The notes under the pieces were generated by a model. The model worked only from the letters and a program-made list of their open reading frames with translations. It had not been told where the DNA came from and did no database searches. Of a DNA stretch of 64,000 bases, positions 35,529 through 45,308 are shown piece by piece. The DNA comes from Legionella jordanis (GTDB lineage Bacteria > Pseudomonadota > Gammaproteobacteria > Legionellales > Legionellaceae), in the NCBI RefSeq assembly GCF_900637635.1, contig NZ_LR134383.1, positions 124,001 to 188,000 of the forward strand, given 5' to 3'. Numbering within the stretch: position 1 is the first letter of the stretch; each line of letters begins with the position of its first letter. A program made the position numbers and the translations under genes.

Positions 35529-37064
35529 TCAATAAAAGTGAGGCTGAGAAAGATGAGCTTGGTTGTCCTGCCTGGCTATGCTATCCCCCTTGGGAAAGAA
35601 GTGATAGGAGTGCCCTGTCGACCCGGTTCTATTTCTGTTCACCATTGCAGCCCGAATAGGGCGCGTTTTTTTCGTCTGTACAGCAAGATGAGCTTCGATG
35701 ACCAAGATGGCTGCTTGATTATGGTGTTTTCGGGCAATTGTTAAAGGGTCTTCCTGATTTAAATTTCTGCTCTTCAGGCTTGCTCCCTTGGCCAGCAATA
35801 GACGAAATAATTCACGATTTTCTTTGCTTAATTTAGAGCGACAAGCCAGCATTAAGGGTGTCAATTGCTTGCAATTGACCGCATCCACCTCCACACCCGG
35901 CATATTTAATATTTCTTTGGCGATTTGATAATGTCCCTGGCGGCAAGCCAATGCCAAGGGTGTTTCCTTTTTTGCACCACAACGAAGGTTGATGTCAAGA
36001 TTGGGTGCTCTCAGTAAATGTCTCACAGCCTGCCATTGCTGATTGGCCATGGCATAGACGAAAGCTGCAGAGAACTGGAGCTCTGTAAGAAAGTTGGTTT
36101 TTTTACTAAGCCTGATGATTTCCCTTAGCGTTTCCTCTTCACCATTTTGAGCGGCAAGCACCAAAGCACTCAGGTTGCGATTATTTAAAATGGTCATATG
36201 TTGGTAAAGTACAGGATAACGGTTATGAAGCTGATGCAATCTGGTTGTCAGCTTTGAAGAAGAATCAGCACTGATGAAATCGATGTTAAAAACAATCTGC
36301 TCCTTTTCTTTAAAACTGAGGTATAACTGCTGGCAAAGCTCCTGATGGTTTAAAACAAGATAAGGTCTGTCCTGCCGTTGACCATAGAGATAGTTAATAT
36401 CAATAAATAGCCAATCTTTTTGCAGTTTTTTGAATCCCGTCGTATGTTCTTCACTGCTAATAAGCATCGCAATGTTATCTTCATTGTTTAGAAGTTCATG
36501 CAAATCTTCTATGAATCTAAGCAGCTTTAATGGTGAAGGAAATGAAAACACTTTACGAAATGCGCAAAAGACCTGTTTGTTTGCTGCTAATCTTGAGGCA
36601 ATCATGCTCAAAATTTGATTGATGCTCGTCTGAGTTAAATGAGAGGCGTAGATGTCTGGAAACCATCCAGGGGTCTGTGCCAGACATAAGGCATCAAGAA
36701 AACTGCCGATTTCAAGTAATTCATCTTCTTGTGGTCTGATGCGCTTTTTAAATTTTATTTTGTGGTTGATTTGCGAGAGTTTATGGGGCAAATCCTGCTT
36801 CTGATTTTTTATGATATTTAGCCTTTGGTAGAAAGCATCATCATAATCCAGTGCTGCATCTTGAGCCCATGTGAGGGTGAAACCGAAACAAACCCCATTG
36901 TCGCGAACGTAATGAAAGCGGCTGATGAGGTCTAGTAAATCATGGTGACTTAAAACTCGGTTAGACCGTGAAGCGTAGGCTCGTTGAAAAAAAGATTGCC
37001 GCAAGACCACCTGATACAGAATAATTACGGCCATACCAACAATAAGAATATAAAAGTAGTACAT
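35529..37064 (-). CDS. Cysteine protease fold with ankyrin repeats, effector candidate
   Basis: The ATG at 37064 (MYYFYILIVGMAVII) follows AAGGAG and AAGGGA; a frame from 37112 is longer but lacks this. The product has 511 residues. It has one membrane span at the N-terminus, then a C58/papain-like core: Cys59 in NGVCFGFTLTWAQ, His207 in EEHTTGF and Asp222 in WLFIDINYLYG. Ankyrin repeats (about 310-475) follow: NLSALVLAAQNGEEETLRE, ETPLALACRQGHYQIAKEIL and LTPLMLACRSK. The core resembles the gene at 1212 (GVCFGY/F). Ankyrin-protease effectors are known in Legionella. The substrate is unknown, and protease activity is inferred. Confidence 0.7.
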   Translation of the reverse strand: MYYFYILIVGMAVIILYQVVLRQSFFQRAYASRSNRVLSHHDLLDLISRFHYVRDNGVCFGFTLTWAQDAALDYDDAFYQRLNIIKNQKQDLPHKLSQINHKIKFKKRIRPQEDELLEIGSFLDALCLAQTPGWFPDIYASHLTQTSINQILSMIASRLAANKQVFCAFRKVFSFPSPLKLLRFIEDLHELLNNEDNIAMLISSEEHTTGFKKLQKDWLFIDINYLYGQRQDRPYLVLNHQELCQQLYLSFKEKEQIVFNIDFISADSSSKLTTRLHQLHNRYPVLYQHMTILNNRNLSALVLAAQNGEEETLREIIRLSKKTNFLTELQFSAAFVYAMANQQWQAVRHLLRAPNLDINLRCGAKKETPLALACRQGHYQIAKEILNMPGVEVDAVNCKQLTPLMLACRSKLSKENRELFRLLLAKGASLKSRNLNQEDPLTIARKHHNQAAILVIEAHLAVQTKKTRPIRAAMVNRNRTGSTGHSYHFFPKGDSIARQDNQAHLSQPHFY

Positions 37065-37291
37065 TCCCTTAGGCTCCTTGCAATCCATTAAAATCAAAAC
37101 ACATCTGGGCATGCCTGTAAAGCTTATAGGAATGGCTTTCCCACCAGCTGTGTAAAACCATCTGAACCATACAATTTATACAGCAACTTAGCTGCTGCGG
37201 GAGAAAATCCAAATAGCAAACCGTAGTGAGAGACAGGCAAACACGTTAGCCAACAAAATTTCAGAATGATAATATAACGAGCATTTAATTC

Positions 37292-40200
37292 ATGGGAATT
37301 ACTATGTTTCTTGCAAGAAGAGCAGCTGCCAGTCCAAACTTTAATTTCATTATTGATACACTGAACCAATATGCTTCATTGCCAGGCCTTAGTGACTGTG
37401 AAATTCGTTTGGCGCTAAACGAAGAGGAGCAAATTCGATTGCAAAATCACCTGGTCTTTTCTTCCCTTCAGTTTCAGTTTGCCCCTAATGCCGACAAGAA
37501 CCAGCCTGCTTTAATCCTCAAAAGCCTTAAACTGAATGCCAAAGAATATGGACTTACACTGGCAATTTTCCGTGACCAGCGGATAGAACAACAGGTGCTG
37601 ATTCCTAAAACATTAGAAACCGAGATCATTAATAATCCGGACGATCACTTTGGTTTGCCTGCTTTTTGTGAGGACAAAGAGCTCTTTATTTGCGTGGAAA
37701 AAAATCTTGGTGAGGATAGGAAACGTCAAATCATCAAGTATCTGGAAGGTCATAAGAACAGTCAGGCGATCCTTTTTGAAATCGATACAAATCAGCCAGG
37801 GCAAGCCTGGGAGCAACTGATTGCCCTTTCAACTGAAGCCAAAACAAGGAATTTCAATCGTCGCGGTATTTTTGTCGCAGTAGGGGGGGCGGCAATCCAA
37901 AATATGGTGGGTATGACCGCCAGAACATTTCGACGTGGGGCAAGTTGCATGTACTACCCACTGACCCAAGATGATCTTAAAGAAGCCTTTAAATTGAATC
38001 CTAAAATTCAATGGGATTCTAAAGCAAGAGCAATCCCTTTTTATCCTGCAACTTGGGTGATCATTGAGAAAAGCCTTGATGTTTCTTTAGGCGATAGCAA
38101 GCTTTGCGAACACTTGCCGCAGTCATTAACCGTAAAGGAGATCACAAAAGCCTTAGAACCCGATAATAATCAGATTGTTCAGGCTTGTCCTGAAAAACGC
38201 CTGTTGATAGTAATTGATAGGAAATTTTATGAATCCCATAAGGAGAAATTGGACGATTATTTCCGTCACAATCTTCTTCTACAGCAGAAAACATATCGAA
38301 TTCTGTTTCTTGAAGGTGGGGATGAAAACAAAAATCAGTTCATTCTCAAAAAAATTATGGACGAGGCCTTCACCGTGGGTGTGGATAATCGCCAAGGCGC
38401 TATCCTTGCTTTTGGTGGTGGCGTTGTTTTAGATGCAGTCGGCGCGGCTGCAGCTTTGGTCGATACCGACTACATTAGAGTGCCAACCACCTTACTGGCC
38501 GTTATTGATGCTGCGGTAGGGATTAAAACTGGGATTAACTTAAACGGCAAAAATGATTTTGGTGCTTTTTATAAACCACGCGCTGTGGTTTACGATCAAG
38601 AATTCCTTAAAACCGAAGCATTAAGAAACATTCAGAGCGGTTTGGCAGAAATGATAAAGATCTTTATCGTAACTGATTCCAGCTCTTTTTATCGCTTGGA
38701 GAAGCATTTTAAACAGTTTCTCACAAAGGATTTCAACGAGAATACCTCAGTGCTGATGAGCGCTGCCATTTATTGCATGCTCCATCAATTGCAACCCAAC
38801 ATTTATGAAGATCGAACTTTAGAAAGATTGGCTGATTTTGGCCATGAAATTGGGCATATCTTCGAATATTTGTCTGAATATCGCCTGCTTCATGGAGAAG
38901 CGGTTTCCCTCGGAATGGCTGTGGCTTCGACAATAGCTTACCACCGACAATTACTGGCTAAGGCAGAGCTTGATAACATATTAAGGTTGTTGCATGCCAT
39001 TGGTTTGCCCATAGCAGATGAATTATATGGGCAAAATCATCTTGGGCACATTGCTGAAAAAATGAGGGATGCTAAAGCCAATAAAGGAGGCGATTCCGCG
39101 GTTGTAGCTCCGGTTAAAGTGGGTCAGGGCAGTTTTATTCGTGACATCAGCCTGGAAGAACTCGAGAGAGCGTTCTCCTATCTGGTTGATGAAAAAGAGC
39201 AGTTGGATAAAGACAAATGGCAAGAGCAGGGCCAACAGTTTATAGTCGATGAATTCAGGCCAACTGAAGCACAAGCTTCAATAGTTTTCGACGTTGGAGG
39301 CACGAATTTACGCTGCGGTGTTTATTTGTCAAATGGCACCTTGGTGTATGAAACGAGAAATCCTACGCCCTCCATAAAATCAATGCCTGAAGCTTCACTT
39401 AAGGAAATTCAACGGTCATTAATTGGCGCTATCAAACAATATGTGCGGCAAGCTCAAGAGAAATTTCCCGAAGAGGACTTGCAACAAGTAATTATTTCTT
39501 TTGCAGGCACACTAAAGAAAGGCGTGGTGCTAAAATCAGCCTCCCTTTGGGGGGAAGCTTCCAATGTGCCCTTGCAGGATATGTTGGAGTCAGCCATGCC
39601 CAATTTAAAGTTTACTTTAATCAATGACGTAATAGCCGCCGCATGGCGTTATGGCACTGACCCCTATTATTCGCAACTGAATAGCATTTGTATCTTCACT
39701 CTAAGCACAGGCATTGGCGCCGCTTATTTCTCAATTGGTGAACAAAATCAGGATAAGGAAGTCATCTCCATCGGCCATAAGAAAAAATTCAATGAAGAAA
39801 ACAGTTTGCAATGCGATTGTGGCGAATATGGGCATTTGGAACCTTATGTGTCTGGACGAGGAGCCCTGCACCAGATCATCCGCATGGCAATTGATGCCAC
39901 CCAATCTTCACAACGTGCTGCTTTTCAACAGTCTTTTTTATTTTACCCGGCAAAGCAAAAATTACTGTCTTTATCTCCATCAAAGATAGAGGCCATTCTA
40001 AAAGATCCCTACATCAAAAAAATTCTAGACGAAAAAGGAATCCCCATTGCCCCCATTGATGAAATGAGTTCATACTTTATCCAAGGTAAAACGGAGTGCT
40101 CTTCCGATCCTGAACTCATTGAGGCATTGGCTTGTGCCGTCGTGATGGATAACCAATTGCTTTGTGCAGCCATTAATAAAAAAGATCCCTTTGTTGAGCC

Positions 40201-43057
40201 GTTGTTTCAGCAGATTGTTGAACAAATTGGCGAGGAAATCCTGCAAATCGCAAGAGGGGGAACCGATCGCATTATTTTAATGGGAGGCTTTGCCAGGGCC
40301 ATTAAAGAGCGGCTGGAAACGGCGTTATTAACTGTTTGCTTGAACAATAAAATTCCTGCTAAACGGGTGCATTCGCTTTTTAGTTGGGCTTTAGACGACG
40401 ATAACGATGGAATTTTGGGGGCGGCCTATTACGGTGATCAACCGCGGCGCTTATGGAGTCTTTTTAATCGGATTATTGCTGACAAGGCCAGATTAGCTCA
40501 GGACAAAGCCTCTGCTTTGCACGAGAAAATATTAAGAAAAGCTTTTCTTTGTGCTTATCATTTCCACAGTCACCGGCCCAAACAGGCAAGTTTTAAATAC
40601 CGGCCTGACGAACCTTCCCGTTATTTCATTTGGCATCCGCTGGAGCTTGCAGGGCAGGTTGTTCGTCAGTTATCTCCAGATGATAGCGAATTGATTGTAG
40701 CGGCTTTCCTGCATGATTTGCTTGAATACACCGAGATGGAAGCAACAAAATTGCAGGAGAGTTTTGGTCTTAAGGTTTTAAACATCGCCTGTGATCTTTC
40801 TCAGCGTCGAGAGTTGCTCTCGATGTCGCTGGCAGATTTAGACAAGCATGGCTTTAACAGCACAATCATTGCCAAGTATTTGGGTTGGGATTTAAGCCTT
40901 CCTCTGGCAGACGAGCAAGTTAAAGCCATAGCAAACATCGCCACCAAAATTGAACACTACTCACGCTTGCTCGATAATCCCCTGGATGTTCGCAGTCAAG
41001 TCCTGAAAATTTTGGATAACATCAATAACTATTCCTCAATCGATAGGCTAAGCAGCAGTGAGCTGAAATACAGAACGGACGTGGAATTGCTGCTCTTTAA
41101 AATTTATCTTGATAAATTATCCGTTCCCAGGGCTATCCGTGCAGATGCTTATAGCTACATCAATAAATTGCTGCTTACTTTCGGCCATGCTGATTTAAAT
41201 TCTGAGGCAAGTAAAAAGAAGCAAGCCTTAATCGAAAGGGACTTATTGCAACCGGCTCGTCGAAAAACGATGGCAGTTTCTATAACAGACAGTTCCTATT
41301 TATACGAAAATTCCCTCTCAAAGGCTTGTGAGCAACTTTCTTGCGCAAAGCAACAAAATTTTGCCCGTGCTTTGAAACGCTTGACGGATTTAAATACGCT
41401 TCCAATCAGCAAAAATCAATTTCTACAAAAATTAAAAGGAGCATTTCAGGCTCAAAGCGAAGAAGCAGAGAGCCAAAATACCAAAGAGGGCAGGCTGTTT
41501 GAAATCGCTTCCCGGCTGTTTAGTCAGCTTAAGGAACACTACTCCTTGCCAGGGCATTATGGCCGATTTTCTTCAAATCTTTCCTCAGCGCAGTTGCTTT
41601 CCTGTGGCCAAACGATTGTTTATTGTCCGAAAGGAAAAAATCTCAGTGTTTTGCCTGGACAAAAATATAAGGATCCGGATACTGGAAGGATTAATCCTCT
41701 AGTTACTGCCATGAGTGGAAGCAAGGAGTTTTGGCTTGAGTTTTTAGAAGAGCAGGAACTTGATGTGGAAAGTCAAAATTTTTATAGTGAAAATCAGACT
41801 GAAATTGATAAATTCCTGCAAGATAAACAATTCCTTTCTTATGCGTCTCTATTTTATACCTCTGATCGGGTGGTTCCTTTCAAGATAAAGTTGCCAAACG
41901 GTAGGGTGCAAGAGCTTTGTCTATTTGAAAGCAACGCCTCTCAAATCGTGGGTGGGCAATTCATGTTTGTCGCGCCAAGCAGTATGCCAGAGCTGCAAAC
42001 GGAACAATTGGTTCGAGAAATCACTTCAATCAGTAAGGCTCTAGATCATTATTTGCTTACGGGCCATTACTCGCGCGCGTTTGAAATCCTTCAGGCGAAA
42101 CATCGCAATCTGGTACGAAGTTTAAATCCAGTGAAATGCCTGCAGCGACGAGGCTCAACCTCTCTGTTATCGACAACCCCTTCCTTTTTTACAGAAAAAA
42201 ACGATGCTCCAAAATCCCCGCAACCTGTCTCGAGCAATGATTTGTTTCCAAAAAGCCAGGCGAAAATGGTATTTCGAAATCTTCCTATTCGCAAAAAAGC
42301 GGCCTTCCCTATGAAAAAAAATGAGCATGCTGAATATCTGTTGATGGTTGCAACAGCACTTGAAGCCAATTACGCCTTGTTTCAAAATTCCTCAGACACG
42401 GCTTCAATTCCTGAGCATTATCATTTCTATGCGGTTAATAAAAATAAATTCCTTTTTGATGGGGAAAAGGTTCAAAGCATTCCCTTGTTTCAGGCGAAAA
42501 AGGCCTATGGGCTTTATCAATCGGACAAATTCATGCTTGAACGGGTTGAATGGCAAGGGGCTTGTTATCGCCTGACTGTCCATTTGCAAGAGCATTTAAT
42601 TGACTATGGCCCTGCTGTGGATTGTCTGCAAATGATAGAGGGGATTGCCAATGAGCTCATTTCTGATGAGGTTAGTGAATCCTGCCAACTCACTTTCGTT
42701 GCCAATCGGCAGAATCATTGTGTTGATCTGTATATTGGAATTCGCAAACATTTTAGAACTTATCCCTTGGAAAATTCTTTGGCCAAGCAGAATGATCTTC
42801 AGTATCCATTTAACGGCGCTTTAGAGTTTGCAGGCATCAATACGATGAAAGATGAAAATGAATTTAAAAAATACCAGGCTTTTTATCAAAAGCATGTTCT
42901 GGAACAAGGAGAGGCAATGGCGAAAAAAATGCTTGTTGAGATTCAAAATGAATCTTTAAGATTGTCGAAACCAGAGACTCAACTTTTGACCGAGTTTGAA
43001 ACTCGTCTTAAGCAAGGGTTAGCTCAACAAGCAGAAACAACTTTTTCATGCAGTTAA
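37292..43057 (+). CDS. Cyclase-ROK kinase-HD multidomain protein
   Basis: The protein has 1921 residues. (1) About 1-240: a partial dehydroquinate-synthase-like half (GIFVAVGGAAIQNMVG). (2) About 300-640: a full sugar-phosphate cyclase with NAD-binding ILAFGGGVVLDAVG, RVPTTLLAVIDAAVGIKTG, NGKNDFGAFYKP, and three metal ligands (Glu in GLAEMIK, His in FGHEIGH, His in LLHGEAVSLGM). (3) About 660-1060: a ROK sugar kinase (FDVGGTNLRCG, TLSTGIG, zinc motif CDCGEYGHLE with the last Cys replaced by His). (4) About 1085-1240: a RelA/SpoT-like HD domain (HPLELAG, AFLHDLLEYTE). (5) About 1380-1921: unknown. The GIKTG variant and a cyclase followed by a ROK kinase resemble C7-cyclitol (valiolone) pathways. 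It is a single gene ended by a terminator. Confidence 0.8.
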   Translation: MGITMFLARRAAASPNFNFIIDTLNQYASLPGLSDCEIRLALNEEEQIRLQNHLVFSSLQFQFAPNADKNQPALILKSLKLNAKEYGLTLAIFRDQRIEQQVLIPKTLETEIINNPDDHFGLPAFCEDKELFICVEKNLGEDRKRQIIKYLEGHKNSQAILFEIDTNQPGQAWEQLIALSTEAKTRNFNRRGIFVAVGGAAIQNMVGMTARTFRRGASCMYYPLTQDDLKEAFKLNPKIQWDSKARAIPFYPATWVIIEKSLDVSLGDSKLCEHLPQSLTVKEITKALEPDNNQIVQACPEKRLLIVIDRKFYESHKEKLDDYFRHNLLLQQKTYRILFLEGGDENKNQFILKKIMDEAFTVGVDNRQGAILAFGGGVVLDAVGAAAALVDTDYIRVPTTLLAVIDAAVGIKTGINLNGKNDFGAFYKPRAVVYDQEFLKTEALRNIQSGLAEMIKIFIVTDSSSFYRLEKHFKQFLTKDFNENTSVLMSAAIYCMLHQLQPNIYEDRTLERLADFGHEIGHIFEYLSEYRLLHGEAVSLGMAVASTIAYHRQLLAKAELDNILRLLHAIGLPIADELYGQNHLGHIAEKMRDAKANKGGDSAVVAPVKVGQGSFIRDISLEELERAFSYLVDEKEQLDKDKWQEQGQQFIVDEFRPTEAQASIVFDVGGTNLRCGVYLSNGTLVYETRNPTPSIKSMPEASLKEIQRSLIGAIKQYVRQAQEKFPEEDLQQVIISFAGTLKKGVVLKSASLWGEASNVPLQDMLESAMPNLKFTLINDVIAAAWRYGTDPYYSQLNSICIFTLSTGIGAAYFSIGEQNQDKEVISIGHKKKFNEENSLQCDCGEYGHLEPYVSGRGALHQIIRMAIDATQSSQRAAFQQSFLFYPAKQKLLSLSPSKIEAILKDPYIKKILDEKGIPIAPIDEMSSYFIQGKTECSSDPELIEALACAVVMDNQLLCAAINKKDPFVEPLFQQIVEQIGEEILQIARGGTDRIILMGGFARAIKERLETALLTVCLNNKIPAKRVHSLFSWALDDDNDGILGAAYYGDQPRRLWSLFNRIIADKARLAQDKASALHEKILRKAFLCAYHFHSHRPKQASFKYRPDEPSRYFIWHPLELAGQVVRQLSPDDSELIVAAFLHDLLEYTEMEATKLQESFGLKVLNIACDLSQRRELLSMSLADLDKHGFNSTIIAKYLGWDLSLPLADEQVKAIANIATKIEHYSRLLDNPLDVRSQVLKILDNINNYSSIDRLSSSELKYRTDVELLLFKIYLDKLSVPRAIRADAYSYINKLLLTFGHADLNSEASKKKQALIERDLLQPARRKTMAVSITDSSYLYENSLSKACEQLSCAKQQNFARALKRLTDLNTLPISKNQFLQKLKGAFQAQSEEAESQNTKEGRLFEIASRLFSQLKEHYSLPGHYGRFSSNLSSAQLLSCGQTIVYCPKGKNLSVLPGQKYKDPDTGRINPLVTAMSGSKEFWLEFLEEQELDVESQNFYSENQTEIDKFLQDKQFLSYASLFYTSDRVVPFKIKLPNGRVQELCLFESNASQIVGGQFMFVAPSSMPELQTEQLVREITSISKALDHYLLTGHYSRAFEILQAKHRNLVRSLNPVKCLQRRGSTSLLSTTPSFFTEKNDAPKSPQPVSSNDLFPKSQAKMVFRNLPIRKKAAFPMKKNEHAEYLLMVATALEANYALFQNSSDTASIPEHYHFYAVNKNKFLFDGEKVQSIPLFQAKKAYGLYQSDKFMLERVEWQGACYRLTVHLQEHLIDYGPAVDCLQMIEGIANELISDEVSESCQLTFVANRQNHCVDLYIGIRKHFRTYPLENSLAKQNDLQYPFNGALEFAGINTMKDENEFKKYQAFYQKHVLEQGEAMAKKMLVEIQNESLRLSKPETQLLTEFETRLKQGLAQQAETTFSCS

Positions 43058-43149: not shown

Positions 43150-44319
43150 ATGGCAGAGGAAATCATCAGCAAATCCTGGGGGAGCCGCATAAAGGATGCA
43201 TTTATGGGCATTCTCTTTGGTATTCTTCTGATCATTGCCGGCATTATTCTCACTTTCTGGAATGAAGGCCATGGTTTGCACACCGCCCAGTCATTAGTTG
43301 AAGCGAAACAACAGCTGATTTCAGTCCCGACCTCACCGATTGATCCCAAAAATAACTTAAAAGTCGTTTATTTTAGCGGCTTCGCCAACACTAAGGATAT
43401 ACTCAGAGATACTCTACTGGGGGTTTCTGAAAATGCAATTTCCTTGCAACGAAAAGTTCTGATGTACCAGTGGAAGGAAAATAAAGAGACCAAAACGGAA
43501 TCTCAATTGGGTGGCTCTGAAAAGCAAGTTACGACTTATTCCTATCAAAAAGTCTGGTCCAGCCGCTTGATTGACAGCAGTCAATTTAAACAACAGCCAG
43601 GTCATGAAAACCCTGCTGCCTTGCCTGTTGAATCCGAACAGCAATATGCGCAAACCGTAAAGGTAGGCGACTTTTTACTGCCCGAAGTATTGATAAGGGA
43701 AATCAGTGAGGCAAAAGCCGTCGATTTAAGTAAGATCAATATTAATAATTTGCAAAGCCGCTTGAATAAGCCCATAAAACTTATCAATAATCAGCTTTAT
43801 GCAGGCCAGGATTATCAAAACCCGCAGGTGGGTGATGTACGCATTTCGCTTCTGGTCATCCCAGCGCAAACGGTTAGCATCATCGCCCAACAAACGGGTA
43901 ACAGTTTGCAGGCTTATATGGCCAAAGCCGGCCAATCTGTTCTTCTGCTTGCTTCAGGACAACAGTCCTCGGATCAAATGATTGAGAATGCTTTAACGGA
44001 AAATCGCATCATCACCTGGATTTTGCGAGGGGCTTCCTTAGCGATGATGATTTTGGGATTTTCCCTCATTCTAAAGCCAATTGTTGTCTTGGCTGATGTT
44101 TTGCCAATATTGGGCAGCATTGCCGGTTTTGGTACGGGTGTAGTGGCCTTTCTCTGTGGATTCAGTCTGTGGGTTTTAATCACGGCCATTGCCTGGTTTG
44201 CCATTCGGCCTTTATGGTCATTGGGTTTGTTGTTAGTTGCTGCGATAATCATATATTTTGTTTATCAGCGGCGAAAAACTAAACCAATCGCTCCTGTACA
44301 ACCCATCAGGAAGGATTAG
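43150..44319 (+). CDS. TMEM43 family membrane protein
   Basis: The protein has 389 residues. An N-terminal membrane span (MGILFGILLIIAGIILTFWNEG) and three C-terminal spans (about 288-375) enclose a soluble domain in the periplasm. FWNEGH, VYFSG and LLPEV match the TMEM43/LUMA family. The human homologue is an inner-nuclear-membrane protein, and the bacterial function is unknown. It is followed after 22 bases by the DUF3592 gene, which forms a two-gene unit with it. Confidence 0.85.
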   Translation: MAEEIISKSWGSRIKDAFMGILFGILLIIAGIILTFWNEGHGLHTAQSLVEAKQQLISVPTSPIDPKNNLKVVYFSGFANTKDILRDTLLGVSENAISLQRKVLMYQWKENKETKTESQLGGSEKQVTTYSYQKVWSSRLIDSSQFKQQPGHENPAALPVESEQQYAQTVKVGDFLLPEVLIREISEAKAVDLSKININNLQSRLNKPIKLINNQLYAGQDYQNPQVGDVRISLLVIPAQTVSIIAQQTGNSLQAYMAKAGQSVLLLASGQQSSDQMIENALTENRIITWILRGASLAMMILGFSLILKPIVVLADVLPILGSIAGFGTGVVAFLCGFSLWVLITAIAWFAIRPLWSLGLLLVAAIIIYFVYQRRKTKPIAPVQPIRKD

Positions 44320-44341
44320 GTAAATTTAATTAAGGACAGCA

Positions 44342-44806
44342 GTGAACTATTGGACATCCTGGCGTTGGTTAATTGACTTCATTTGGCTCTTTTTTTTAAT
44401 GGCCTTATTGCGTTATTTCTGGCGAGATCGACAACAATTAAAAAAAACCAAAAACTGGCATGCCACCAAAGGGCGTATTACTCAATTTTTATGGACACAG
44501 GAAGGGCATCGGCTTTGGCCAAAAATTCAATACAGTTATCGTGTCTATGAGCAGGATTATCAGGGTGAACATCTTTTTTTAGACAGTTCACACAACAGTC
44601 CAAATAGCAAATACGCGCGTCATTTAGCTTACCGTGCGGCCATGGCTTATGAAAAAGATGAGGAAGTGGATGTGTTTTACAACCCGGACAATCCCAATGA
44701 GGCGGTGCTCGATACGACCATGCCTCGCAAGCTTAATCTCATTATAGTTTTATTGACTTTCCTTATTTTACTTCACTTGTTGATTGTTTTTTATCGTTTG
44801 CTTTAG
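44342..44806 (+). CDS. DUF3592 membrane protein
   Basis: The protein has 154 residues and starts with GTG, with AAGGA five bases before it. Membrane spans lie near residues 10-25 and 132-150, with a beta-rich domain between them (WHATKGRI, YSYRVYEQDYQGEHLF, VDVFYNPDNPNEAVLD). The YNPxNPxxA motif is diagnostic of DUF3592. Function is unknown. The 3' end overlaps the opposite-strand IcmL-like gene by 44 bases. Confidence 0.85.
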   Translation: MNYWTSWRWLIDFIWLFFLMALLRYFWRDRQQLKKTKNWHATKGRITQFLWTQEGHRLWPKIQYSYRVYEQDYQGEHLFLDSSHNSPNSKYARHLAYRAAMAYEKDEEVDVFYNPDNPNEAVLDTTMPRKLNLIIVLLTFLILLHLLIVFYRLL

Positions 44807-45308
44807 TGGATTCATCAGCCGATGCGGGTTGACAACGACAAGGAGGCTTGCTGATCTTTGCTTGCAAACTCTCAATTGCAAGCCCTCGTACTCCTTGTCC
44901 TGATGGTGCTGGAATGAAATTAATGGTTACCAGTAAATGCTGCGTTTGCTGATACTGCGGGTTTTTATAAAGCACCAGTAGAGGCATGCTGGCTTGCCAT
45001 TGATCGGTTTTGATGGTTTTAACCTCTGGAGGCGAGGTGGCTACCGAGCTTACAAAATAAGAGTTCTGCTGCACCATTTGCGGAAGTTTTGCCGCATTCA
45101 ATGCATTGCTGTAAGCAATCCAACCCGATGCAGTGAAATATTTGGCAATTTCTTTCTGGCGAGTTAAGAAATTTTTGTAATCATAAGTATAGGTGGCTAC
45201 AATGGCTTCATTGGCCCAAACTGCAAGCTGAGTATTATCGGGGGCTGCAAAAGAGGGCATGGAGGATACCAGGAAAAGAAAAATCGCAAAAAATTTGCTT
45301 CGCTGCAT
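44763..45308 (-). CDS. IcmL/DotI-like secreted protein
   Basis: The protein has 181 residues. The signal peptide (MQRSKFFAIFLFLVSSMPSFA) replaces the membrane anchor of true DotI/IcmL. The mature part has the IcmL pattern: WANEAIVATYTYDYKNF, FTASGWIAYSNALN, and WQASMPLLVLYKN. It is likely a soluble periplasmic paralogue of the Dot/Icm inner-membrane component, as are other IcmL-like genes of Legionella. It is remote from any visible dot/icm cluster. The tail-to-tail overlap with the DUF3592 gene is 44 bases. Confidence 0.82.
   Translation of the reverse strand: MQRSKFFAIFLFLVSSMPSFAAPDNTQLAVWANEAIVATYTYDYKNFLTRQKEIAKYFTASGWIAYSNALNAAKLPQMVQQNSYFVSSVATSPPEVKTIKTDQWQASMPLLVLYKNPQYQQTQHLLVTINFIPAPSGQGVRGLAIESLQAKISKPPCRCQPASADESTKANDKKQSTSEVK

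What the first reader, a model, noticed from the sequence alone, without database searches (positions are those of the whole stretch)
37292..43057. Single protein joining a sugar-phosphate cyclase, a ROK kinase and a RelA/SpoT-like HD domain
Seen: an NAD-binding cyclase with all three metal ligands (Glu in GLAEMIK, His in FGHEIGH, His in LLHGEAVS), then ROK motifs (FDVGGTNLRCG, CDCGEYGH), then an HD domain. Known: in acarbose and validamycin pathways a valiolone synthase is followed by a separate ROK-like kinase. Inference: this protein may make and phosphorylate a C7 cyclitol, or another cyclised sugar, in an intracellular bacterium. I know of no such three-part fusion.
Basis: partly seen in the sequence, partly recalled or inferred. 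Interest (0 to 1): 0.85.

Follow-up and report, generated by a model that had tools for sequence, protein, structure and literature searches.

The report
Fused cyclitol-making enzyme with extra domains
One very long bacterial protein joins a ring-forming sugar enzyme related to the one that starts acarbose synthesis to a matching sugar kinase and to further domains, which suggests that steps normally spread over several genes have been packed into one protein in a Legionella-like bacterium.

Summary
The searches made here found no third full-length copy.

The cyclase groups in trees with sedoheptulose 7-phosphate (S7P) cyclases (ValA, an AcbC-like protein), not with AroB; the genome has a separate AroB. 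Its pocket is mixed: two diagnostic columns read as in S7P cyclases, two as in AroB, so the product is open. The ROK part groups with ROK kinases encoded with such cyclases. The fused pair thus mirrors a known two-gene pair.

The HD domain is RelA/SpoT-like with its metal residues present.

Most likely it makes a cyclitol from S7P and phosphorylates it; the HD and HIT-like parts may process or activate the phosphate. Product, later steps and biological role are not shown. The genome looks like Legionella (inferred), so bench work on this gene is referred.

The parts
37292..43057 (+). Whole open frame, 1921 aa, free-standing gene (ankyrin-repeat gene on the other strand upstream, TMEM43-family gene 92 bases downstream)
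   Evidence: ortholog 59% identical over aa 5-1906 in G016
37622..38101 (+). aa 111-270: degenerate second cyclase N-domain; where the complete cyclase of this protein has GGGVVLD this one has GGAAIQN; no metal-binding half follows
   Evidence: PF01761 25.9 bits, cut-off 24.2, at aa 170-225 (21.9 bits in the ortholog, below cut-off); AroB profile 19.3 bits, ortholog 14.7, against a best of 4.3 among 2000 shuffles of the C-terminal parts; hhalign E 5.1e-5, probability 67%; 50% identity between orthologs
38159..39211 (+). aa 290-640: complete sugar phosphate cyclase, by tree of the sedoheptulose 7-phosphate type; metal ligands E453, H518, H534; N503 and D515 as in S7P cyclases, H522 and K595 as in AroB
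39272..40471 (+). aa 661-1060: ROK kinase with a variable insert at about aa 870-960; expected catalytic D779 and metal-site candidates H829, C841, C843, H848 (roles recalled from the family)
   Evidence: PF00480; tree and motif table; hhalign with other ROKs E 2.1e-25; identity 78% (aa 661-870), 42% (insert), 76% (aa 961-1060) between orthologs
40472..41161 (+). aa 1061-1290: RelA/SpoT-like HD domain; H1115, H1141-D1142, E1145 and D1242 conserved in the ortholog (roles recalled from the family)
41459..42076 (+). aa 1390-1595: conserved region of unknown kind (LPGHYGRFSSNL; FESNASQIVGGQFMFV)
   Evidence: 55% identity between the two orthologs; no family, PDB or profile match
42302..43006 (+). 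aa 1671-1905: probable HIT/GalT-superfamily domain resembling DUF4922; motif H1709-Y-H1711-F-Y1713
   Evidence: hhalign E 0.0011 with DUF4922 against 0.36 (GalT), 0.46 (AroB), 0.5 (ROK); hmmsearch 13.1 bits, first of 1366 ORFs of the loci held and above 2000 shuffles

Best explanation
The gene encodes a multi-enzyme protein for a cyclitol (carbasugar), probably C7. [quoted passage not shown] the precise product is open because its pocket mixes S7P-cyclase and AroB residues. The fused ROK unit then puts a phosphate from ATP on that cyclitol, as AcbM does at O-7 in acarbose synthesis. Shown by sequence: both units keep their known catalytic residues, and each groups with proteins found together in cyclitol gene clusters. 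Inferred: substrate, product and channelling. Less sure: the HD unit acts as a metal-dependent phosphohydrolase, and the C-terminal HIT/GalT-like unit, through a histidine-nucleotide intermediate, moves a nucleotide onto or off the cyclitol phosphate. The degenerate N-terminal cyclase half is probably a structural or regulatory relic of a duplication.
For: Best PDB match of the cyclase is 4p53 (E 1.1e-45), ahead of the dehydroquinate synthase chains (3.8e-35 and weaker); 4P53 is ValA (PMC4426668, passages). Tree of 46 rows: window and ortholog fall in an 11-row group with ValA, 5tpr, an AcbC-like protein and six further S7P-type cyclases (98/84); own AroB is on the other side. With four rows out: 10-row group, 98/95. 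AU p 0.0248 against grouping with DHQS. Columns N503 and D515 read as in the S7P group (N in 8 of 10, D in 9 of 10 rows, ortholog included) and never as in AroB (D and N in 28 of 28). ROK tree of 34 rows: 6-row group of window, ortholog and four S7P-cyclase-cluster ROKs, 100/99; the group stays in subsets of 14, 13 and 11 rows. These 6 share His for the third Cys of the CxCG motif; of 28 others, 26 have Cys, 1 has His, 1 showed no motif. Of 14 plasmid records matched by the ROK part, the two best E-values are the ROK of an acarbose-type cluster and the ROK beside the A. vitis cyclase. HD. HIT-like; its E of 0.0011 with DUF4922 is better than that between DUF4922 and GalT themselves (0.014).
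Against: H522 and K595 are as in AroB (28 of 28 rows each), where none of the nine other S7P-group rows has either (Pro in 6, Tyr in 2, Val in 1; Val, Thr, Ala or Trp). The cyclase pair is on a long branch (1.49 changes per column), and NCBIfam's best score for it is the aroB model, below cut-off. 5tpr (DDGS, a label that I recall; the tool prints 3-dehydroquinate synthase) lies inside the same group, so EEVS and DDGS products are not told apart. The AU p is modest. The ROK tree has long branches that meet (warning); the S. clavuligerus ROK was not among the 14 plasmid matches. No ROK-like frame lies in the short flanks held of six other cyclase loci tested. HIT-like assignment: hhalign probability only 12-21%, 4.4 bits in the ortholog, no match to GalT itself, no Pfam match to DUF4922, no PDB match, Tyr in place of the motif's Gln, both AlphaFold jobs failed (pLDDT 36 and 39). 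No reductase, dehydratase or glycosyltransferase was recognised among the neighbours examined.
Confidence: 0.58

Rival explanations
1. Only the cyclase and kinase are enzymes; the HD domain and C-terminal third are regulatory or scaffolding (for instance the HD unit senses (p)ppGpp), and the degenerate N-domain mimics a dimer partner.
For: HD matches are below Pfam cut-offs; the Glu-Asp of the RelA HD motif reads Glu-Tyr here; HIT evidence is weak and its glutamine is lost.
Against: The HD metal residues and both His of the HxH motif are kept in the ortholog; the C-terminal unit is 56% identical between orthologs, well above the two linkers (24% and 35%) though below cyclase and ROK.
Confidence: 0.25
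2. It is a cargo protein of the Dot/Icm (type IVB) secretion system and makes a cyclitol or sugar phosphate inside the host cell.
For: The genome has a DotA/TraY match in a 996-aa frame and a DotI/IcmL-family gene in the window; the gene is large, free-standing and found in 2 of 143 genomes of the order; an ankyrin-repeat gene lies next to it, and the ortholog lies near a RasGEF-domain gene.
Against: No secretion signal was tested; lying beside such genes is weak evidence in a genome of this type; the pathway resembles ordinary secondary metabolism.
Confidence: 0.15
3. A divergent sugar phosphate cyclase that still uses DAHP (an AroB-like duplicate), fused to a sugar kinase.
For: H522 and K595 as in 28 of 28 AroB rows; NCBIfam's highest score is the aroB model (221.8 bits, below its cut-off of 305).
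Against: Trees and AU test; N503 and D515 differ from 28 of 28 AroB rows; 4p53 is the best PDB match; the genome has its own AroB; the fused ROK is of the cyclase-associated group.
Confidence: 0.1
4. Assembly or frame artefact that joins separate genes.
For: None found.
Against: Full-length 59% identical frame in another genome with other neighbours; conserved through all modules.
Confidence: 0.01

Closest known systems
[quoted passage not shown] sugar phosphate cyclase superfamily)
   Same: Family, metal ligands, N503 and D515 columns, tree position
   Different: AroB-like H522 and K595, two residues fewer than ValA after the glycine-rich motif (alignment), long branch, fused to other units
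AcbM / ValC type ROK cyclitol kinases
   Same: ROK motifs, CDCG with His for the third Cys, tree position, pairing with an S7P cyclase. AcbM and ValC themselves were not in the set; an AcbM-like ROK was, so named by its cluster's content
   Different: Part of one chain with the cyclase; carries a variable insert of about 90 aa
RelA/SpoT HD hydrolase domain
   Same: H...HD...D metal set and alignment
   Different: Glu-Asp of the catalytic motif reads Glu-Tyr; no synthetase domain was matched; scores below Pfam cut-offs
DUF4922 / Ap4A phosphorylase / GalT (HIT superfamily)
   Same: HxH motif region aligned to DUF4922, and in a permissive alignment the elements up to the C-terminus
   Different: Far below family thresholds; no match to GalT itself; Tyr for the Gln of HxHxQ (motif recalled)
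Separate-gene S7P cyclase plus ROK pairs (A. vitis, R. rhizogenes, S. clavuligerus, Streptomyces sp. NBC_00467 plasmids)
   Same: Same two enzymes, adjacent genes in three of four clusters, about 9 kb apart in the fourth
   Different: Separate genes within larger clusters; no HD or HIT-like partner is annotated in the stretches shown (the gene table of that collection is incomplete)

Membership tests
[quoted passage not shown]
   98/84 and 98/95; AU p 0.0248; AU p is modest and the branch is long
[quoted passage not shown]
   E453, H518, H534; GGGVVLD
EEVS proper (ValA/AcbC) | 14 active-site fingerprint residues of ValA (Kean 2014, named in PMC4426668) | tested here: inconclusive
   The list itself was not readable; of four group-diagnostic columns that I could read, two agree with the S7P group and two with AroB
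EEVS proper (ValA/AcbC) | Converts sedoheptulose 7-phosphate to 2-epi-5-epi-valiolone | not testable with these tools
   needs an assay
AroB (3-dehydroquinate synthase) | Meets the aroB equivalog score and groups with AroB | tested here: not met
   221.8 bits, cut-off 305; tree
ROK kinase | Pfam ROK over cut-off; DxGGT, catalytic Asp, CxCG metal motif | tested here: met
   58.6 bits, cut-off 22.9; motifs, with His in place of the third Cys
Cyclitol kinase (AcbM type) | Groups with ROKs encoded with S7P cyclases | tested here: met
   100/99 group of 6 rows, with a long-branch warning; kept in three subsets
Cyclitol kinase (AcbM type) | Phosphorylates a C7 cyclitol at O-7 | not testable with these tools
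   needs an assay
RelA/SpoT-like HD hydrolase | H...HD...D metal residues | tested here: met
   H1115, H1141, D1142, D1242
RelA/SpoT-like HD hydrolase | Score over a family cut-off | tested here: not met
   HD_4 20.4 (27.2) and HD 16.7 (22) bits; HD_4 23.4 and HD 20.5 on the excised piece
DUF4922 / HIT-GalT superfamily | Score over PF16269 cut-off | tested here: not met
   no PF16269 match at E up to 10
DUF4922 / HIT-GalT superfamily | Profile similarity above controls, with the HxH motif aligned | tested here: met
   hhalign E 0.0011-0.0023 against 0.28 or more for GalT, AroB and ROK profiles; first of 1366 ORFs
Dot/Icm-translocated protein | Translocation into host cells | not testable with these tools
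   not done

The most novel reading that the evidence does not exclude
A one-chain assembly line that takes sedoheptulose 7-phosphate to a nucleotide-activated carbasugar: cyclase, cyclitol kinase, HD phosphohydrolase and HIT/GalT-type nucleotidyl transferase. These are the same kinds of step, in the same order, as cyclase, kinase, phosphatase and nucleotidyltransferase in acarbose synthesis (whose intermediate steps have no counterpart here), with unrelated enzymes for the last two, in an intracellular bacterium.
Probability: 0.2. Interest if true: 0.85.

Novelty: new variant of a known kind. Interest (0 to 1): 0.66.

Why it matters
Cyclitol (carbasugar) pathways are known from actinomycete drugs, sunscreens and plant symbionts. 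A fused cyclase and cyclitol kinase in a Dot/Icm-bearing bacterium points to an unknown carbasugar in a lineage for which the searches made here found no such compound. The fusion is itself an argument that the two enzymes act together, the mixed pocket of the cyclase may mean a new ring product, and the HD and HIT-like parts suggest new solutions for the later phosphate and nucleotide steps.

Tried and rejected
Assembly artefact: rejected by the full-length ortholog. Cyclase as an AroB duplicate: disfavoured, not excluded. GalT proper for the C-terminus: no similarity. Ap4A phosphorylase N-domain as a partner: only 2 of 100 genomes gave matches, both below the family cut-off, so no profile was built. 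Wider relatives: the named-genome scan gave one AroB-type locus (it uses short exact peptide patterns and may leave out near records, so it does not exclude other copies); the viral scan gave none; class and phylum draws gave only cyclase matches at E up to 1e-37. Structure prediction of aa 1390-1921 and 1655-1921 without an alignment failed, so no fold search was run. dN/dS could not be estimated for the whole and most parts because synonymous sites are saturated. Promoter- and terminator-like sites lay within about 1.3 standard deviations of shuffles. Papers: searches (0 papers; 8 of 8 listed; 7 of 7; 5 of 5) showed nothing on such a protein; others (40 of 51 listed; 15 of 4,219; 10 of 2,060) were capped; most subscription journals are not held.

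Mends and rows dropped: the first hhalign run used wrongly framed rows (8 of 15 DUF4922 rows, and some others); it was redone. On checking, the GalT control still held two misframed rows of 13 (L055, L060); redone with corrected frames (one row, L050, was then cut to 23 aa), same outcome. Cyclase tree: 13 of the 18 loci L006-L023 were used (L007, L014, L017, L018 and L022 left out), and all of L030-L047. ROK tree: 24 of the 25 loci (L108 left out). DUF4922 profile: 15 of 19 loci (L076-L079 left out).

Full report
What is there. Window 37292-43057 (+) is one uninterrupted frame of 1921 aa in a 3.13 Mb single-contig genome. No tool names the organism; a DotA/TraY match in a 996-aa frame of the genome and a DotI/IcmL-family gene in the window make Legionella or a near relative likely (inference). 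The gene stands alone: an ankyrin-repeat gene lies upstream on the other strand and a TMEM43-family gene 92 bases downstream.

Is it real. Among 56 relatives searched with the whole protein, one other genome of the same genus (G016) has a full-length match, 59% identical over aa 5-1906, in one frame of 1984 codons; most other matches there are AroB-type. Its neighbours differ: a Stealth-type gene and a RasGEF-domain gene and a repeat protein that looks RTX-like by eye (not scanned). In 143 genomes of the order the C-terminal 618 aa were found in 2: the window's own genome and G016. With the whole protein at E up to 1e-37, 14 of 369 class genomes and 10 of 398 phylum genomes matched, the own genome being one of each; the other 13 and 9 matches cover only the cyclase part. 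The named-genome scan gave 1 relative, of AroB type; the viral scan gave none. So the gene is rare and patchy in what was searched, and the fusion is not an assembly error.

Anatomy. Identity between the two copies marks the modules: 50% for aa 111-270, 73% for 290-640, 78% for 661-870, 76% for 961-1060, 63% for 1061-1290, 55% for 1390-1595 and 56% for 1671-1905, against 24-45% for aa 1-110, 641-660, 870-960, 1291-1389 and 1596-1670. Aa 111-270 is a degenerate first half of a cyclase (PF01761 over cut-off at aa 170-225; hhalign with AroB E 5.1e-5), so the protein holds one and a half cyclases.

The cyclase. The best solved match is 4p53 (1.1e-45), before the dehydroquinate synthases; PMC4426668 (passages) identifies 4P53 as ValA. 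In a 46-row tree, window and ortholog join ValA, 5tpr, an AcbC-like protein and six further S7P-type cyclases with 98/84 support; own AroB lies on the other side with 28 more rows. 5tpr is printed by the tool as 3-dehydroquinate synthase; that it is the cyanobacterial DDGS is recalled. With four rows left out (three long, one of odd composition) the 10-row group has 98/95. Forcing the pair to the DHQS side costs 10.3 log units, AU p 0.0248. After the ortholog, the row nearest by path is the AcbC-like protein in both trees. A column count gives a mixed pocket: N503 and D515 agree with the S7P group (8 of 10 and 9 of 10 rows, ortholog included) and with none of 28 AroB rows; H522 and K595 agree with all 28 AroB rows and, apart from the ortholog, with none of the nine S7P-group rows. 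The five EboD-like rows also have D515 and H522. So the tree puts it on the S7P side, but its product need not be 2-epi-5-epi-valiolone.

The kinase. ROK motifs are complete. In the plasmid collection 14 records matched the ROK part; the best E-values are from Streptomyces sp. NBC_00467 (4e-14), whose cluster looks like an acarbose cluster by its annotated products (my reading), and from the ROK beside the A. vitis S7P cyclase (7e-14); Natrialba follows at 8e-10 and R. rhizogenes at 1e-9; the S. clavuligerus ROK is not among the 14. In a 34-row tree window and ortholog group with all four cyclase-associated ROKs (100/99); subsets of 14, 13 and 11 rows keep window and ortholog with those left in. 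The tool warns of long branches. As a separate character these 6 rows have His for the third Cys of the CxCG motif; of the 28 others 26 have Cys, 1 (Natrialba) has His and 1 gave no motif. Cyclase and kinase genes are adjacent in A. vitis, R. rhizogenes and S. clavuligerus and about 9 kb apart in NBC_00467. In the flanks held (about 1.5 kb a side or less) of six other cyclase loci no ROK-like frame was found. [quoted passage not shown]

The HD domain matches RelA/SpoT chains (9s6k 1.1e-4). H1115, H1141-D1142 and D1242 form the usual metal set (roles recalled); the Glu-Asp of the catalytic motif is Glu-Tyr here. It is below Pfam cut-offs.

The C-terminus. aa 1671-1905 resemble DUF4922, two members of which also match Ap4A_phos_N, and one CwfJ, below cut-off. 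hhalign E is 0.0023 with the whole C-terminus and 0.0011 with the last 267 aa; GalT, AroB and ROK profiles give 0.36, 0.46 and 0.5 with the same piece, and DUF4922 against GalT, accepted relatives, gives 0.014. A DUF4922 profile scores the window protein at 13.1 bits, first of 1366 ORFs from the window and loci held, DUF4922 loci left out (next 5.3), and above 2000 shuffles (best 7.0); the ortholog's same stretch scores only 4.4. H1709 and H1711 align with the HxH motif. Against: no Pfam or PDB match, hhalign probability 12-21%, no match to GalT, Tyr for the motif's Gln, and AlphaFold without an alignment failed. I take this as a probable, not a proven, HIT/GalT-type unit. aa 1390-1595 remain unassigned.

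How it most likely works. Sedoheptulose 7-phosphate is cyclised by aa 290-640 with NAD+ and a metal; phosphate leaves; the ROK unit re-phosphorylates the cyclitol from ATP. In acarbose synthesis later steps include a second kinase (AcbU), a phosphatase (AcbJ) and a nucleotidyltransferase (AcbR) giving GDP-valienol, after modification by AcbL and AcbN (PMC9200736, passages). The HD and HIT-like units could supply phosphohydrolase and nucleotidyl steps with unrelated enzymes; the steps of AcbL, AcbN and AcbU have no counterpart in this chain. The first two steps rest on the homology shown above; the rest is inference.

Known or new. The searches (listings; one search capped at 10 of 2,060) and passages of PMC7826186 on algal EEVS clusters and PMC5133447 on EboD show no such fusion; the held library lacks most subscription journals. 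The enzymes are of known kinds; their union in one chain with HD and HIT-like units is new as far as these searches reach.

Noticed in passing
window 35529-37112 (-): Ankyrin-repeat protein gene directly upstream on the other strand (Ank_2 1.3e-14).
   Followed up: partly
window 44763-45308 (-): Small protein of the DotI/IcmL family (PF11393, 1.4e-20), far from the genome's DotA/TraY match.
   Followed up: no
window 43150-44806 (+): TMEM43-family gene followed by a DUF3592 gene just downstream of the fusion gene.
   Followed up: no
L113 1-19501 (G016): The ortholog lies beside a Stealth-type (CR1/CR2) gene and near a RasGEF-domain gene, and near a 1248-aa repeat protein that looks RTX-like by eye.
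   Followed up: partly
L018, L022 and G011:C16:1597-2517: In three same-genus genomes the frame reported for the AroB match is 861-882 aa (the G011 match runs across one TAA), against about 370-380 aa in most others; a possible AroB fusion.
   Followed up: no
L042, L043: AroB-type frames of 576 aa in two genomes of the phylum, on a long shared branch.
   Followed up: no
L082 2605-3720: Streptomyces microflavus plasmid cyclase with PNLFE but an AroB-like NLGH stretch, on a very long branch; product unknown.
   Followed up: partly
L081 4749-7053: Gloeothece plasmid: TatD-family gene next to a cyclase annotated 3-dehydroquinate synthase, reminiscent of eboB-eboD of the ebo operon in PMC5133447 (passages).
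   Followed up: partly
L111 3992-7640: Tsukamurella plasmid with a ROK gene close to a class II DAHP synthase gene.
   Followed up: no
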